Positions 9,136 through 16,788 of a DNA stretch of 46,083 bases are shown piece after piece (position 1 is the stretch's first letter; each line of letters starts with the position of its first letter). Origin of the DNA: an uncultured Solirubrobacteraceae bacterium (GTDB taxonomy: Bacteria > Actinomycetota > Thermoleophilia > Solirubrobacterales > Solirubrobacteraceae); contig CADCVR010000090.1 in assembly GCA_902806205.1 (NCBI GenBank), positions 1 through 46,083 on the forward strand, written 5' to 3'. The notes beneath the pieces were generated by a model. It ran no database searches and had not been told where the DNA came from. It worked only from the letters and a program-made list of their open reading frames with translations. The position numbers and the translations under genes are program-made.

Positions 9136-9456
9136 TCAGGCCAACGCGGGTTCGAGCTGCGCTTCGAGCTTCTTCTTCGGGTAGGCGCCGATGATCTTCG
9201 CGGCGGGCTGCCCGGCCTTGAACAGGATCATCGTCGGCAGGGAGAGGATCTGGAACTGCGCGGCGGTGTGCTGGTTCTCGTCCACGTTGAGCTTGACCAC
9301 GCGCAGGCCGCGCTCCTCGGAGATCTGCTCGAGCACCGGGGAGACGGCACGGCACGGGCCGCACCACGGCGCCCAGAAGTCGACGAGGACGGGCTCGAGG
9401 CTCTCGACCACCTCGGCCTTAAAGCTCGCGTCGGTGACGTCGGTGACGTCGGCCAT
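9136..9456 (-). CDS. trxA: Thioredoxin (second of a tandem pair)
   Basis: This 106-residue single-domain thioredoxin has the classic FWAPWCGPC active site (Cys32, Cys35), the NVDENQ segment and cis-Pro74 in SLPT. It reduces disulfides of cytoplasmic proteins with electrons from thioredoxin reductase, which is not in this window. It starts 3 nt after the stop of the upstream thioredoxin, so the two are almost certainly co-transcribed and translationally coupled. The paralogues share roughly 70% of residues. The C-terminal PKKKLEAQLEPALA is complete. Confidence 0.95.
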   Translation of the reverse strand: MADVTDVTDASFKAEVVESLEPVLVDFWAPWCGPCRAVSPVLEQISEERGLRVVKLNVDENQHTAAQFQILSLPTMILFKAGQPAAKIIGAYPKKKLEAQLEPALA

Positions 9457-9459
9457 CGC

Positions 9460-9783
9460 TCAGATCACCGGCTCGATCTCGCTGACGAGCTTCTTCTTGG
9501 GGAAGGCACCCACGATCTGCTTGGCGGGCTGACCCGCCTTGAAGACGATCATCGTCGGGATCGACATGACGCCGAACTGCGCGGCGGTCCGCTGGTTGTC
9601 GTCGACGTTGAGCTTGACGATGCGCAGGTCGTCACGCTCGGCGGCGATCTCCTCCAGGACCGGGCCCACCACGCGGCACGGGCCGCACCACGGCGCCCAG
9701 AAGTCGACGAGGACCGGCTTGTCGGACTCGATGACCTCGGCCTGGAAGTTGGCGTCTGTGACGTCGGTGACGGCGATGCCCAT
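9460..9783 (-). CDS. trxA: Thioredoxin (first of a tandem pair)
   Basis: A 107-residue thioredoxin with FWAPWCGPC (Cys33, Cys36), NVDDNQ and the cis-Pro segment SIPT. I start at 9783 (MGIAVTDV) because a ribosome site AAGGAG lies 7-8 nt upstream. The longer ORF start at 9816 would translate the leader and operator-like palindrome. It is the leading gene of the pair, with the palindrome at 9811-9830 just upstream, so it is probably under a specific regulator. Tandem duplication is evident from the near-identical N-termini (TDVTDA). Confidence 0.95.
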
Positions 9784-9810
9784 GTCGATGCTCCTTGGAA
9801 GAGAGGGGAT

Positions 9811-9830
9811 CTTCACTATACAAAGTGAAG
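9811..9830. promoter_or_regulatory. Inverted repeat upstream of the thioredoxin operon
   Basis: The 20-bp sequence CTTCACT-N6-AGTGAAG has perfect 7-bp arms (9811-9817, 9824-9830) and lies 27 bp upstream of the first thioredoxin ATG. On the minus strand it also contains TATAGT, a plausible -10. The arm length and spacing recall MerR/HspR-type operators, but the bases differ from the HspR consensus. The regulator is unknown. Confidence 0.5.
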
Positions 9831-10680: not shown

Positions 10681-11406
10681 TCAGCCGCCACGGCGCCGCA
10701 GTCCGGGGACCATCACGACGGCCTCCGCGGCGATCCGCCAGGTCATCTTCGACGTGCCGCGCTGACGGTCGCGGAACGTGATCGGGACCTCGCGCACCCG
10801 GAAGCCCTGACGGATCGCGCGGTAGGTGAGCTCCACCTGGAAGGCGTACCCGTGGGAGCGGACGGTCGGCAGGTCCACCGCGCGGAGCACTTCCGCGCGG
10901 AAGCACTTGAAGCCACCGGTGAGGTCGCGCACGCCGAGTCCGAGCGCCCGGCGCGCGTACCACGACCCGCCGCGCGAGACGAGCCGGCGGCCGCGGCCCC
11001 AGTCGGTCACGCCGCCCCCGGGCACGTACCGCGAGCCGAGCGCGAGGTCCACGGAGCCACGCGCCGCCTCCAGCAGCCGGGGCAGGTCGGCGGGGTCGTG
11101 CGAGAAGTCCGCGTCCATCTGGAGGACGAACGCGGCCGCCTCCTCCAGCGCGCGCGCGAACCCGGCCAGGTAGGCCGGGCCGAGGCCGGCACGCTCGGTG
11201 CGGTGCAGCACGCGCAGGGCCGGGAGCTCCTCGGCGAGACGGTCGGCGATCCTCCCCGTTCCGTCGGGCGAGCTGTCGTCGACGACGAGGATCCGGTGAC
11301 CCTCCGCGGCCGCGCGCGCGAGCAGGACATCGGCGGCCCGCACGATCGCCTCGATGTTCTCGGCCTCGTTGAACGTGGGGAGGATGAGCCAGGCGGCGCC
11401 GGACAT
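10681..11406 (-). CDS. Polyprenol-phosphate mannose synthase-like GT2 glycosyltransferase
   Basis: This 241-residue GT-A enzyme has LPTFNEAENI at the N-terminus, the nucleotide-binding DDSSPDGT, the metal-binding DADFSHDP and the family signature LTGGFKCFR. The conserved C-terminal VPITFRDRQRGTSKM is also present. Length equals stand-alone Dpm1/Ppm1 catalytic domains without the C-terminal membrane part. It should transfer mannose (or a related sugar) from GDP-sugar to polyprenyl phosphate at the inner membrane face, feeding extracellular glycosylation. It is divergent from polX with only 23 bp between start codons and appears to share a symmetric promoter with it. Confidence 0.92.
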   Translation of the reverse strand: MSGAAWLILPTFNEAENIEAIVRAADVLLARAAAEGHRILVVDDSSPDGTGRIADRLAEELPALRVLHRTERAGLGPAYLAGFARALEEAAAFVLQMDADFSHDPADLPRLLEAARGSVDLALGSRYVPGGGVTDWGRGRRLVSRGGSWYARRALGLGVRDLTGGFKCFRAEVLRAVDLPTVRSHGYAFQVELTYRAIRQGFRVREVPITFRDRQRGTSKMTWRIAAEAVVMVPGLRRRGG

Positions 11407-11435
11407 GGCGGCCGTACCCTAGGGGCCGCATGTCC
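11401..11435. promoter_or_regulatory. Symmetric bidirectional promoter, dpm1-like gene / polX
   Basis: Only 23 bp separate the two ATGs. The heptamer TACCCTA (11415-11421) reads as a -10 on both strands: TACCCT on plus and TAGGGT on minus. Each lies exactly 9 nt from its ATG, so both transcripts would be leaderless or nearly so. A larger inverted repeat (GGACATG...CATGTCC with GGCCG arms, 11401-11435) covers both start codons, partly because both proteins begin Met-Ser. Confidence 0.6.
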
Positions 11436-13187
11436 GCCCCCGCCGCCCGCCCGGACCCGCCGAACGCCGCGATCGCCGCGCTCTTCGACGAGCTCGCCGA
11501 CCTCTACGAGCTCGACGGCGCCTCGATTCACCGCGTGCTCGCCTACCGCAACGCCGCGAAGACCGTCCGCGAGGCGCCGCGCTCGATCGCCGCCCTCACG
11601 CGCGAGGGGAGGGTCACGTCGCTGCCGGGCATCGGCAAGACGCTCGAGGAGAAGGTCACCGCGCTGCTCGAGACGGGCTCGATCCCGGCGGTGGAGAAGC
11701 TGCGCGCACGTTTCCCGCAGGGGCTGGTGGAGATGACGCGGCTGCCGGGCCTCGGCCCGAAGAAGGCGCGCACGCTCTTCCACGAGCTCGGGGTGGATGG
11801 GCTGGAGGCGCTCCGGCTCGCGGCCGAGCAGGAGCAGCTGCGCGACGTCAAGGGCTTCGGGGCGAAGTTCGAGGCGTCCGTCCTCGCCGCGCTCGACGCG
11901 GGGCTCGGTGGGGCGCTCGCACCGCGGGTGCTGCTGCACAAGGCGCTGCCGATCGCCGAGGGCATCGTCGAGGCGCTGCGCGCACACCCGGCCGCGGACA
12001 AGGTCGAGCTGGCCGGCAGCGCGCGCCGCCGCGCTGACTCCTGCAAGGACCTCGACATCATCGCCACGGCCTCGGATCCGGCGGCGCTGATCGCCGCGTT
12101 CGGCGAGCTCGACGTCATCGAGTCCGTGAGCGGGGTTCCCGGGCAGAACGCCGCGAAGGCCCGCACGCACACGGGCATGCCGGTCGATCTGAAGGTCGTC
12201 GCGCCCGACCAGTTCGGCAACCTCCTGCAGCACTTCACGGGCTCCAAGCTGCACAACGTCTCCCTGCGCGAGGCCGCGGTGCGCAAGGGGCTGCACGTCA
12301 GCGAGTACGGGCTGCTCGACGACGCGACGGGGCAGACCCACCGCTGCTCCACCGAGCACGAGGTCTACGAGCGCCTCGGCCTGCCGTGGATCCCGCCCGA
12401 GCTGCGCGAGAATCGTGGTGAGCTCGCGCTCACCGACGCCGGAGGGGTGCCGGTGCTGATCGAGCACGCCGATCTGGTGGGGGATCTGCACATGCACACC
12501 ACGGCCTCCGACGGACGCAACTCCGTCGAGCAGATGGCCGAGGCGGCGCGCGCCCGCGGGCTGCAGTACATCGCGATCACCGACCACTCCGCGACGCACG
12601 GCTTCGGCAAGCACGTCACTCCGGACGACCTGCGCCGCCAGATCGAGCGCGTGCGCGAGGTCGACGCCGCCCTCGAGGGCATCGAGGTGCTGATCGGCAC
12701 CGAGACGAACATCCTCACCGACGGCAGCCCGGACTATCCCGACGAGCTGCTCGCCGAGCTCGACTGGGTGATGGGCTCCTTGCACACCGCGTTCGGGCAC
12801 GAGCCGACCCGCCGCCTGGTCACCGCGTGCGAGCACCCGTGGATCGACTGCATCGGCCACCCGACGGGCCGCAAGATCGAGTCGCGCCCGCCCTACGACG
12901 TCGACATGGAGCAGGTCATCGACACCGCCGTCCGGACTCAGACGATGCTCGAGATCAACTCCGCACCCGACCGCCGCGACCTGAACGACATCCACGCACG
13001 GGCGGCCCGCGACGCGGGAGCGCGCATCGTCGTGGATTCCGACGCCCACGGGACGAACACGCTCGGGATCACGGTGTGGGGCATCGCGACCGCGCGCCGC
13101 GCCTGGCTGACGAAGGCCGACGTCGCCAACACCTTGCCCTGGGCGCAGTTCGCGCCGCTGCGCAAGCGCGCGACCGCGAAGCGCTGA
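11430..13187 (+). CDS. polX: DNA polymerase/3'-5' exonuclease PolX
   Basis: A 585-residue bacterial family-X polymerase. The N-terminal helix-hairpin-helix region includes LPGIGKTLEEKV and LPGLGPKKARTLF. The polymerase palm has GSARRR at 196-201 and catalytic Asp207/Asp209 in KDLDIIA. The C-terminal PHP phosphoesterase domain begins near residue 350 with GDLHMHTTASDG (His354, His356), then ITDHS, GTETNIL, HPTGR and DSDAHGTN. The family fills short gaps in base-excision repair, while the PHP domain supplies Mn-dependent 3' trimming. The ATG at 11430 lies 9 nt after a -10-like TACCCT with no ribosome site, so a leaderless mRNA is likely. It converges on the next gene with 11 bp between stop codons. 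Confidence 0.96.
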   Translation: MSAPAARPDPPNAAIAALFDELADLYELDGASIHRVLAYRNAAKTVREAPRSIAALTREGRVTSLPGIGKTLEEKVTALLETGSIPAVEKLRARFPQGLVEMTRLPGLGPKKARTLFHELGVDGLEALRLAAEQEQLRDVKGFGAKFEASVLAALDAGLGGALAPRVLLHKALPIAEGIVEALRAHPAADKVELAGSARRRADSCKDLDIIATASDPAALIAAFGELDVIESVSGVPGQNAAKARTHTGMPVDLKVVAPDQFGNLLQHFTGSKLHNVSLREAAVRKGLHVSEYGLLDDATGQTHRCSTEHEVYERLGLPWIPPELRENRGELALTDAGGVPVLIEHADLVGDLHMHTTASDGRNSVEQMAEAARARGLQYIAITDHSATHGFGKHVTPDDLRRQIERVREVDAALEGIEVLIGTETNILTDGSPDYPDELLAELDWVMGSLHTAFGHEPTRRLVTACEHPWIDCIGHPTGRKIESRPPYDVDMEQVIDTAVRTQTMLEINSAPDRRDLNDIHARAARDAGARIVVDSDAHGTNTLGITVWGIATARRAWLTKADVANTLPWAQFAPLRKRATAKR

Positions 13188-15607: not shown

Positions 15608-16408
15608 CTACGCGAGCGCGACGAGCAGGTCCCGGACGCCCGCCGTTCCGTCGACCGTGAGGTCGGCGGCAGCCTCGAGCTCGGGCGGCGTCTCCTCGGA
15701 GCGCACGCCGACGCAGAGCGCGGCGCCCAGGCGACCGTCCTCCACCAGGCCGCGGAGGCCGGCGAAGGCGTCGAGGTCCGTGCGGTCGTCGCCCGCGTAG
15801 AGGGCGACGTCGAGCCGGGCGTCGGCGAGCAGGCGGACGATCCCGCGGCCCTTGTCCATCGCGACGGGCGGGCGCACCTCGAGCACCTTGCGCCCCCAGT
15901 GGGTGTGCAGGCCCTCGGCCTCGGCGCGCTCGGCCAGCCGGCGGACCGCGGCCTCGGCGGCTACCTCGTCCGGCGCGCCCCGCCAGTGGAACGCCGCGAT
16001 CGCCGCCTTGTCCTCCGCGCGGACGCGCAGCCGATCGAGCTCCCCGGTCTGCGCGCCGCGGGCCCAGGCGCGCACGCGCACGCCCCAGTCGGCGACCTCG
16101 GGGTCGATCTCGGCCTCCGTCGCGCCGCCGCGCAGCACCTCCGTGCCGTGGTTGCCGATGTAGGTGATGGAGCCGAGCGCGACGATCCGCCGCGCCACCG
16201 CGGCGCGGCGCCCGCTCACGCACGCGACGATGCCGTAGCGCTTGGCGATCTGGATGAGCGGCGTGCGCGTCGGCTCGGGGACGTGCGCGTCGTCGGCGTG
16301 GCGGACGATGGGTGCGAGCGTGCCGTCGACATCGAGCAGGACCCCCGCCTTGCGTGGGTCGGCGAGCAGCGGTGCGAGCGCTTCGGCGAGCGGGAGGGCG
16401 GCGGCCAT
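15608..16408 (-). CDS. otsB: Trehalose-6-phosphate phosphatase
   Basis: A 266-residue HAD-superfamily enzyme. Motif I is LLDVDGTLAPI (Asp nucleophile and acid/base Asp), motif II is VSGRRAAVARR, a YIGNHGTEVL cap-entry segment follows, then KVLEVRPPVAMDKG with the conserved Lys, and motif IV is GDDRTDLDAF. These are diagnostic of OtsB, which removes phosphate from trehalose-6-phosphate to give the osmolyte trehalose. No otsA is in the window. It is divergent from the TauE gene with 20 bp between starts, sharing a candidate -10. Confidence 0.93.
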   Translation of the reverse strand: MAAALPLAEALAPLLADPRKAGVLLDVDGTLAPIVRHADDAHVPEPTRTPLIQIAKRYGIVACVSGRRAAVARRIVALGSITYIGNHGTEVLRGGATEAEIDPEVADWGVRVRAWARGAQTGELDRLRVRAEDKAAIAAFHWRGAPDEVAAEAAVRRLAERAEAEGLHTHWGRKVLEVRPPVAMDKGRGIVRLLADARLDVALYAGDDRTDLDAFAGLRGLVEDGRLGAALCVGVRSEETPPELEAAADLTVDGTAGVRDLLVALA

Positions 16409-16428
16409 CTGCGCTCTAGTATGGCGCC
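16409..16428. promoter_or_regulatory. Near-symmetric bidirectional promoter, otsB / tauE
   Basis: The 20-bp divergent gap contains TAGTATG (16417-16423). On plus it gives TAGTAT, 6 nt before the tauE ATG; on minus it gives CATACT, 9 nt before the otsB ATG. There is no ribosome site on either side, so leaderless transcripts are expected. Confidence 0.5.
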
Positions 16429-16788
16429 ATGCCGCGCCGCCGAATCCTCGCGCTGGCGGCGATCGGGACGGCGGCCGGGCTCTTCTCCGGGCTGTTCGGC
16501 GTGGGCGGCGGCGTCGTCATGGTTCCGCTGCTCGTCTTGTGGCTCGGGTACGGCGACCGGGAGGCCACGGGAACCTCTCTCGCCGCGATCGTCGTCATCG
16601 CGACGGCGGCGACGCTCACCCACGGCGCCTACGGCAACGTGCGCCTCACGGAGGGCCTGCTCGTCGGCGTCCCGGCGATCGGTGGGGTGCTGGCGGGCAC
16701 CTGGCTGCAGCAGCGCATCGAGCCGCGCAAGGTCCGTCTGCTGTTCGCGGCCCTGCTCGTCGTGTCCGCCGTCGAGTTGTTGACCTGA
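16429..16788 (+). CDS. TauE/SafE-type exporter, N-terminal half
   Basis: A 119-residue protein with four transmembrane segments that corresponds to the first of the two internal repeats of TauE/SafE sulfite/organosulfonate exporters. Key residues are GLFGVGGGVVMVP, ATGTSLAAI and YGNVRLTEGLLVG. The frame ends at a TGA (16786-16788) that is immediately followed, in the same frame, by a GTG opening the second half. The usual family length is about 240-270 residues, so one in-frame stop splits an otherwise normal gene. The two halves may pair in the membrane, or the gene may be newly broken. The start lies 6 nt after TAGTAT. Confidence 0.8.
   Translation: MPRRRILALAAIGTAAGLFSGLFGVGGGVVMVPLLVLWLGYGDREATGTSLAAIVVIATAATLTHGAYGNVRLTEGLLVGVPAIGGVLAGTWLQQRIEPRKVRLLFAALLVVSAVELLT

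What the first reader, a model, noticed from the sequence alone, without database searches (positions are those of the whole stretch)
11401..11435. One symmetric -10 serving two leaderless genes (dpm1-like / polX)
TACCCTA reads as TANNNT on both strands and lies exactly 9 nt from both ATGs in a 23-bp gap. Divergent transcription from symmetric promoter elements is a known phenomenon, but as the sole promoter for two leaderless housekeeping genes it is unusually compact. It would link sugar-lipid synthesis to a DNA repair polymerase.
Basis: partly seen in the sequence, partly recalled or inferred. Interest (0 to 1): 0.65.

Follow-up and report, generated by a model that had tools for sequence, protein, structure and literature searches.

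The report
Shared promoter core, two facing genes
In a group of soil actinobacteria, two unrelated genes lying head to head only 23 bases apart appear to be switched on from one small mirror-symmetric promoter element, and related species keep the symmetry mostly while the two genes stay neighbours.

Summary
TACCCTA (11415-11421) sits in the middle of a 23-bp gap, 8 nt from each start codon, and reads TANNNT on both strands. The genome (Solirubrobacterales) is rich in leaderless-type starts: TANNNT ends 6-10 nt before 158 of 849 called starts in a 31% sample. Among relatives, 55 of 57 compact dpm1/polX gaps keep TANNNTA while the middle three bases vary (11 variants). Where the genes are apart, the symmetric A follows TANNNT in only 5 of 37 dpm1 and 6 of 28 polX promoters. 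In this genome A follows TANNNT at 9 of 158 such starts, and 7 of those 9 face a divergent start (8 by hand), against 6 of 149 others. So the core is best read as one bidirectional -10 of the known 18-bp class, serving two leaderless or nearly leaderless genes. It is one case of a recurring architecture; the otsB/TauE pair 5 kb away is a half-symmetric example. The kind of element is known; the double leaderless use, its conservation and its decay when the pair splits look like a new variant. No TSS data exist here. The suggested functional link is not supported.

The parts
11415..11421 (.). symmetric core TACCCTA: the two -10 hexamers overlap by 5 bp; A(-11) and T(-7) of each strand pair with T(-7) and A(-11) of the other
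   Evidence: sequence; TANNNTA kept in 55 of 57 compact relatives
11415..11420 (+). -10 element TACCCT for polX, 9 nt before its ATG
   Evidence: spacing within the 6-10 nt class of this genome
11416..11421 (-). -10 element TAGGGT for the dpm1-like gene, 9 nt before its ATG
11407..11429 (.). whole 23-bp intergenic gap
10681..11406 (-). dpm1-like glycosyltransferase family 2 (polyprenyl/dolichyl-phosphate sugar transferase-like), 241 aa
   Evidence: Pfam PF00535 8.4e-27; PDB 5mlz 1.9e-33; no NCBIfam equivalog above cut-off
11430..13187 (+). polX, DNA polymerase/3'-5' exonuclease PolX, 585 aa
   Evidence: NF006375 461.4 bits, cut-off 426; HHH_8, pol beta thumb, PHP
11427..11430 (+). predicted transcription start zone for polX (inferred, not measured)
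   Evidence: inference from -10 position; 7-bp rule as quoted in PMC12825309
11406..11409 (-). predicted transcription start zone for dpm1-like gene (inferred, not measured)
   Evidence: inference from -10 position; 7-bp rule as quoted in PMC12825309

Best explanation
TACCCTA is a bidirectional -10 promoter element. RNA polymerase with the main sigma factor can bind the same 7 bp in either orientation, because A(-11) and T(-7), the two bases flipped out on melting, are reciprocally paired on the two strands, and the outer T/A pair supplies T(-12) to both. One orientation makes polX mRNA, the other dpm1-like mRNA; both start at or within about 3 nt of the start codon, so the same element also fixes translation as leaderless or near-leaderless. 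Only one polymerase can sit there at a time, so the two starts are mutually exclusive per event (inferred). Shown: position, symmetry, conservation, genome-wide leaderless-type spacing, and lower frequency of the symmetric base where the genes are apart. Inferred: sigma factor use, transcription start sites, bidirectional activity, absence of other promoters.
For: Geometry equals the 18-bp class described for E. coli and Salmonella (passages of PMC10268837 and the introduction of PMC12825309). Genome-wide peak of TANNNT 6-10 nt before starts: 158 of 849. TANNNTA in 55 of 57 compact loci, the window's own included; invariant TA...TA beside variable NNN and flanks in those 55 rows, which were chosen for having it. 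Distance from T to start 6-11 nt in 49 of 55 on the dpm1 side and 42 of 54 on the polX side. Symmetric base rarer when genes are apart: 5 of 37 dpm1, 6 of 28 polX. Phylogenetically independent pairs: 5-6 of 9 go the expected way, 0 the other way, sign test p 0.03-0.06. In this genome A follows TANNNT in 9 of 158, and 7 of 9 face a divergent start against 6 of 149 others (Fisher 1.4e-7). SD-like words upstream in only 8 (polX) and 0 (dpm1) of 55.
Against: No transcription start data for this or any relative used here. The 9-nt spacing on both sides is longer than the 6-7 nt mode. Of 34 adjacent loci with a longer gap, 21 still keep TANNNTA near dpm1 by my reading of the listing, several of them with a separate polX -10, which simple sharing does not predict. 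polX-side distances of 21-39 nt in 5 of 54 rows would need a leader. Six of 28 lone polX promoters also have the A. The Fisher tests ignore relatedness.
Confidence: 0.8

Rival explanations
1. Only one gene (most likely dpm1) uses this -10; the symmetric base is kept for another reason, such as discriminator preference at -6, and the other gene is transcribed from inside its neighbour.
For: Many loci with an insertion between the genes keep TANNNTA beside dpm1 although polX has its own -10 (L103, L106, L108, L110, L114, L122). One side, G-C-G left of the core (C in 50 of 55), is better conserved than the other.
Against: A at -6 is rare in this genome (9 of 158) and in lone dpm1 promoters (5 of 37), so no general -6 preference. 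polX starts sit at 6-11 nt in 42 of 54 rows. Lone polX genes have their own TANNNT at the same distance in 28 of 33.
Confidence: 0.1
2. TACCCTA is a palindromic operator for a regulator of both genes instead of, or as well as, a core promoter.
For: Conserved symmetric site between two genes; TACCCTA itself is the commonest variant (32 of 55).
Against: The three central bases vary (11 variants) and flanks vary; spacing to both starts matches the genome's -10 class; the same core stands between unrelated gene pairs.
Confidence: 0.05
3. Two adjacent but separately evolved promoters that overlap by chance of compaction, without any selected sharing.
For: Every TANNNT already carries A(-11)/T(-7) on the other strand, so half-symmetry comes free; compact loci L008 and L064 lack the symmetric core and, by eye, carry two distinct -10s.
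Against: Full overlap is expected in 0.1-0.4% of random gaps of 17-26 bp but is present in 55 of 57 compact relatives and is less frequent after separation.
Confidence: 0.05

Closest known systems
Bidirectional promoters from -10 symmetry (Warman et al. 2021, not held, known from citing papers; PMC10268837, PMC12825309)
   Same: Shared -10 with reciprocally paired -11A/-7T; start sites 18 bp apart predicted here; polymerase fits in either orientation
   Different: Those papers map starts in E. coli and Salmonella; [quoted passage not shown] Here both directions lead straight into start codons of two protein genes with no room for a leader, and the full symmetry is conserved across two families
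Leaderless TANNNT promoters of actinobacteria and Deinococcus-Thermus (PMC3898074, PMC12340547)
   Same: TANNNT without a conserved -35 (PMC3898074), close to the start codon; leaderless mRNA
   Different: Those are described as one-way; PMC3898074 notes closely juxtaposed divergent promoters and a divergent leaderless pair (Rv1129c/Rv1130) in M. tuberculosis, but in the passages seen does not describe one -10 serving both. PMC12340547 holds no occurrence of 'divergent' or 'bidirectional'
EcoRV restriction-modification divergent promoters (PMC5333194, passages)
   Same: Two divergent core promoters overlap so polymerase cannot bind both at once
   Different: Regulated by C protein; the paper gives a leaderless transcript for the other system, AhdI

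Membership tests
Bidirectional promoter (18-bp class) | -10 element readable on both strands with -11A/-7T reciprocally paired | tested here: met
   TACCCTA
Bidirectional promoter (18-bp class) | Divergent start sites 7-25 bp apart, typically 18 | not testable with these tools
   predicted 18 bp (11409/11427) to 24 bp (11406/11430); no TSS data
Bidirectional promoter (18-bp class) | RNA made in both directions | not testable with these tools
   no expression data held
Leaderless actinobacterial promoter (TANNNT) | TANNNT at fixed short distance before the start codon | tested here: met
   9 nt on both sides; genome class 6-10 nt, 158 of 849
Leaderless actinobacterial promoter (TANNNT) | mRNA begins at or within a few nt of the start codon | not testable with these tools
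   inferred from spacing only
Leaderless actinobacterial promoter (TANNNT) | No Shine-Dalgarno needed | tested here: inconclusive
   SD-like words in 8 (polX) and 0 (dpm1) of 55 compact loci; the window has AGGGG 4 nt before the polX ATG, not kept in L002

The most novel reading that the evidence does not exclude
Solirubrobacterales genomes contain a class of leaderless divergent gene pairs, with gaps of about 20-27 bp, whose only shared start signal is one fully symmetric -10, TANNNTA. The base A at -6 is rare at other leaderless promoters and so marks the class; each pair is a fused transcription-translation unit in which polymerase orientation alone chooses the gene, and the outer symmetry is lost after the pair splits.
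Probability: 0.5. Interest if true: 0.7.

Novelty: new variant of a known kind. Interest (0 to 1): 0.57.

Why it matters
It suggests a near-minimal regulatory unit: 23 bp holding two promoters and, with no leader, both translation start signals. Because relatives show the pair both joined and separated, it offers natural tests of how bidirectional promoters arise, are held by selection and decay, and of whether two genes on one -10 compete for polymerase. TANNNTA between close divergent starts gives a simple signature to look for in other leaderless-rich genomes.

Tried and rejected
A functional tie between dpm1 and polX was considered and dropped: the pair is broken many times and other unrelated pairs share the architecture. 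A -35 element was looked for by eye at the expected places (11392-11397 and 11439-11444); none resembling TTGACA. The pair is not adjacent in 26 polX loci outside the class (hits needed E<1e-15, so distant dpm1 genes could be missed). The L251 pair (glycosyltransferase 4/epimerase) was followed in relatives: eight loci were read of the 30 fetched (L343 is itself, L344-L350 the relatives), and by eye none of the seven relatives keeps the close arrangement. Papers on leaderless divergent pairs sharing a -10 were sought; none of the listed papers appeared from title and abstract start to describe it, but the library lacks most subscription papers, and Warman et al. 2021 was not held.

Known slips: the dpm1 half had a frame error and is replaced. 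The gene caller is my own simple codon-usage script, not a standard one; it missed the L259 partner, found by hand. In one search five of 30 otsB loci had no core by the pattern used (L314, L318, L319, L320, L331) although L314 and L318 have a close TANNNT by eye; of the other 25, 14 of 14 compact loci kept T(-12) for the plus gene and 3 of 11 others did; a compact call there included two loci with plus gaps of 4 and -2 by projected start.

Full report
What is there. The gap between a dpm1-like glycosyltransferase (10681-11406, minus) and polX (11430-13187, plus) is 23 bp. Its middle 7 bp, TACCCTA at 11415-11421, read TANNNT on both strands, 8 nt from each start codon (9 nt from the last T of each hexamer). 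Both genes are well supported: Pfam for both, NCBIfam PolX above cut-off, and for the other a best solved-structure match to dolichol monophosphate mannose synthase, without an NCBIfam equivalog above cut-off, so its sugar and lipid are unknown. The window is a whole contig of a 3.38-Mb, 108-contig genome; named relatives place it in Solirubrobacterales.

Is the genome leaderless-rich? In 1,056,770 bp (the window and 60 stretches, 31% of the genome) a simple codon-usage caller gave 851 genes and 849 usable starts. TANNNT ends 6-10 nt before 158 of them (41, 46, 22, 28, 21), against a background of 1.87 per position (smaller samples gave the same picture). So a -10 next to the start codon is a normal start signal here, and 9 nt is inside that class, though not its mode. 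If the start site is 7 nt beyond the T, the two mRNAs would begin at 11409 and 11427 with 3-nt leaders and lie 18 bp apart, the commonest spacing of bidirectional promoters. If they begin at the ATGs they lie 24 bp apart.

Conservation. From 220 loci, 178 gave a dpm1 5' end, 135 after removing copies alike over 60 nt; 42 loci had no usable dpm1 match and were set aside. Of the 135, 91 have polX divergent within 800 bp and 44 do not. Of the 91, 57 are compact (anchor distance up to 82 nt), and 55 of these 57 have TANNNTA, with 11 different central triplets (the window's locus is one of the 55). The two exceptions, L008 and L064, lack TANNNTA; by eye each gene there has its own separate -10-like site. 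Of the 34 longer ones, 21 keep TANNNTA beside dpm1 and 13 do not, by my reading of the listing; those without it include loci of one family (f3) with 90-140 bp gaps and separate elements.

What happens when the genes are apart. Of 44 non-adjacent dpm1 genes, 37 have TANNNT 5-14 nt before an in-frame start, and the symmetric A follows in 5 of 37. Of 33 polX genes without the dpm1 neighbour, 28 have TANNNT 5-12 nt before a start, and A follows in 6 of 28. Against 55 of 57 the Fisher values are 1.6e-17 and 6.8e-13, but relatedness is ignored. On a polX tree of 81 rows, 69 with both traits scored, the compact state changes at least 12 times; in 9 independent pairs the symmetric base goes the same way 5-6 times, never the other way (sign test 0.03-0.06). 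A neat pair is L060 (joined, TAGCCTA) and its sister L065 (apart, TAGGCTT).

A result that does not fit smoothly. In loci with an insertion between the genes (L103, L106, L108, L110, L114, L122), polX has its own TACCCTG, TACGCTG or TAGGCTG, yet the dpm1-side core is still fully symmetric. Either the old plus-strand promoter is still used as a second polX promoter, or the splits are recent, or A at -6 has some value for dpm1. L069, L165, L171 and L212, also with longer gaps, did lose it.

Depth. In the same class but other orders, 9 of 22 polX loci (all 9 in families f7 and f10) also face dpm1; 7 of those 9 have an A-N3-T core 5-12 nt from both starts, but followed by C, so only the polX strand has T(-12). 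Full TANNNTA therefore looks like a feature of Solirubrobacterales built on an older shared core. L262 (family f3) shows AATCTAGAGT, two hexamers sharing only TA, the 23-bp spacing also named as common in PMC12825309. None of 26 loci outside the class was adjacent.

A class, not a single case. In the 31% sample, A follows TANNNT in only 9 of 158. Seven of the nine face a divergent gene start at 5-14 nt on the other side, against 6 of 149 others (Fisher 1.4e-7); an eighth, L259, was missed by the caller and seen by hand. They comprise dpm1/polX (both sides), L382 17183/17204 (both sides; 20-bp gap; phosphoribosyltransferase-like by eye, and a small protein), L384 9482 (thioredoxin-like by eye, with an alternative start for the alpha/beta-hydrolase-like partner), L251, L381 and, by hand, L259; only L243 has no partner. 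Without the two rows of this locus it is 5 of 7. Chance of full overlap in a random gap is 0.1-0.4%. Close divergent pairs without sharing also exist (L252, L258).

The neighbour pair in the same window. An otsB-like trehalose phosphatase and a TauE/SafE-like gene are divergent with a 20-bp gap and a half-symmetric core TAGTATG (16417-16423). In relatives 14 of 14 compact loci with the core keep T(-12) for the TauE strand; 3 of 11 non-compact ones do (5 of 30 loci had no core by that pattern). This is a second sign of the same rule.

Mechanism. Best reading: one bidirectional -10 used in either orientation by RNA polymerase, with start codons so close that both messages are leaderless or nearly so. 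Shown: sequence, spacing, conservation, association with divergent neighbours. Inferred: transcription in both directions, start sites, exclusivity. PMC12825309 (start of abstract and introduction read) reports that in E. coli such promoters have low basal activity and little competition unless transcription rises, so the two genes need not be tightly anti-correlated.

Novelty. Bidirectional -10s and leaderless TANNNT promoters are both known, and M. tuberculosis has closely juxtaposed divergent leaderless genes (PMC3898074, passages and legends seen). The combination, its conservation and its decay on separation were not seen in the listings, which cover open-licence papers only.

Noticed in passing
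window 15608-16408 (-) and 16429-16788 (+), core 16417-16423: Second ultra-compact divergent pair (otsB-like / TauE-SafE-like, 20-bp gap) with a half-symmetric shared -10 TAGTATG, conserved in relatives while the pair is compact.
   Followed up: partly
L251 10669/10696: Glycosyltransferase-4 / NAD-epimerase pair, 26-bp gap, ACATTACGCT: two leaderless-range -10s sharing TA (23-bp register); close arrangement not kept in L344-L350 by eye.
   Followed up: yes
L382 17183/17204, L384 9482, L259 15901: Further divergent pairs with full TANNNTA between start codons in the same genome; conservation not examined.
   Followed up: no
L103, L106, L108, L110, L114, L122: Loci with extra sequence inserted between dpm1 and polX keep the full symmetric core at dpm1 although polX has its own -10; why is unexplained.
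   Followed up: partly
L264, L266, L267, L269, L272, L273, L277: Sister orders have dpm1/polX gaps that can be even tighter (17 bp in L269 if dpm1 starts at GTG) with cores such as TATCATC, symmetric only at A(-11)/T(-7).
   Followed up: partly
L070: Record titled Bifidobacterium breve carries a polX locus 66% identical to the window's and grouping with Solirubrobacteraceae loci on the tree: the record name looks wrong.
   Followed up: no
window 9136-9456 and 9460-9816 (-): Two thioredoxin-like ORFs (by eye) in tandem downstream of dpm1 and a SpoIIM-domain ORF.
   Followed up: no
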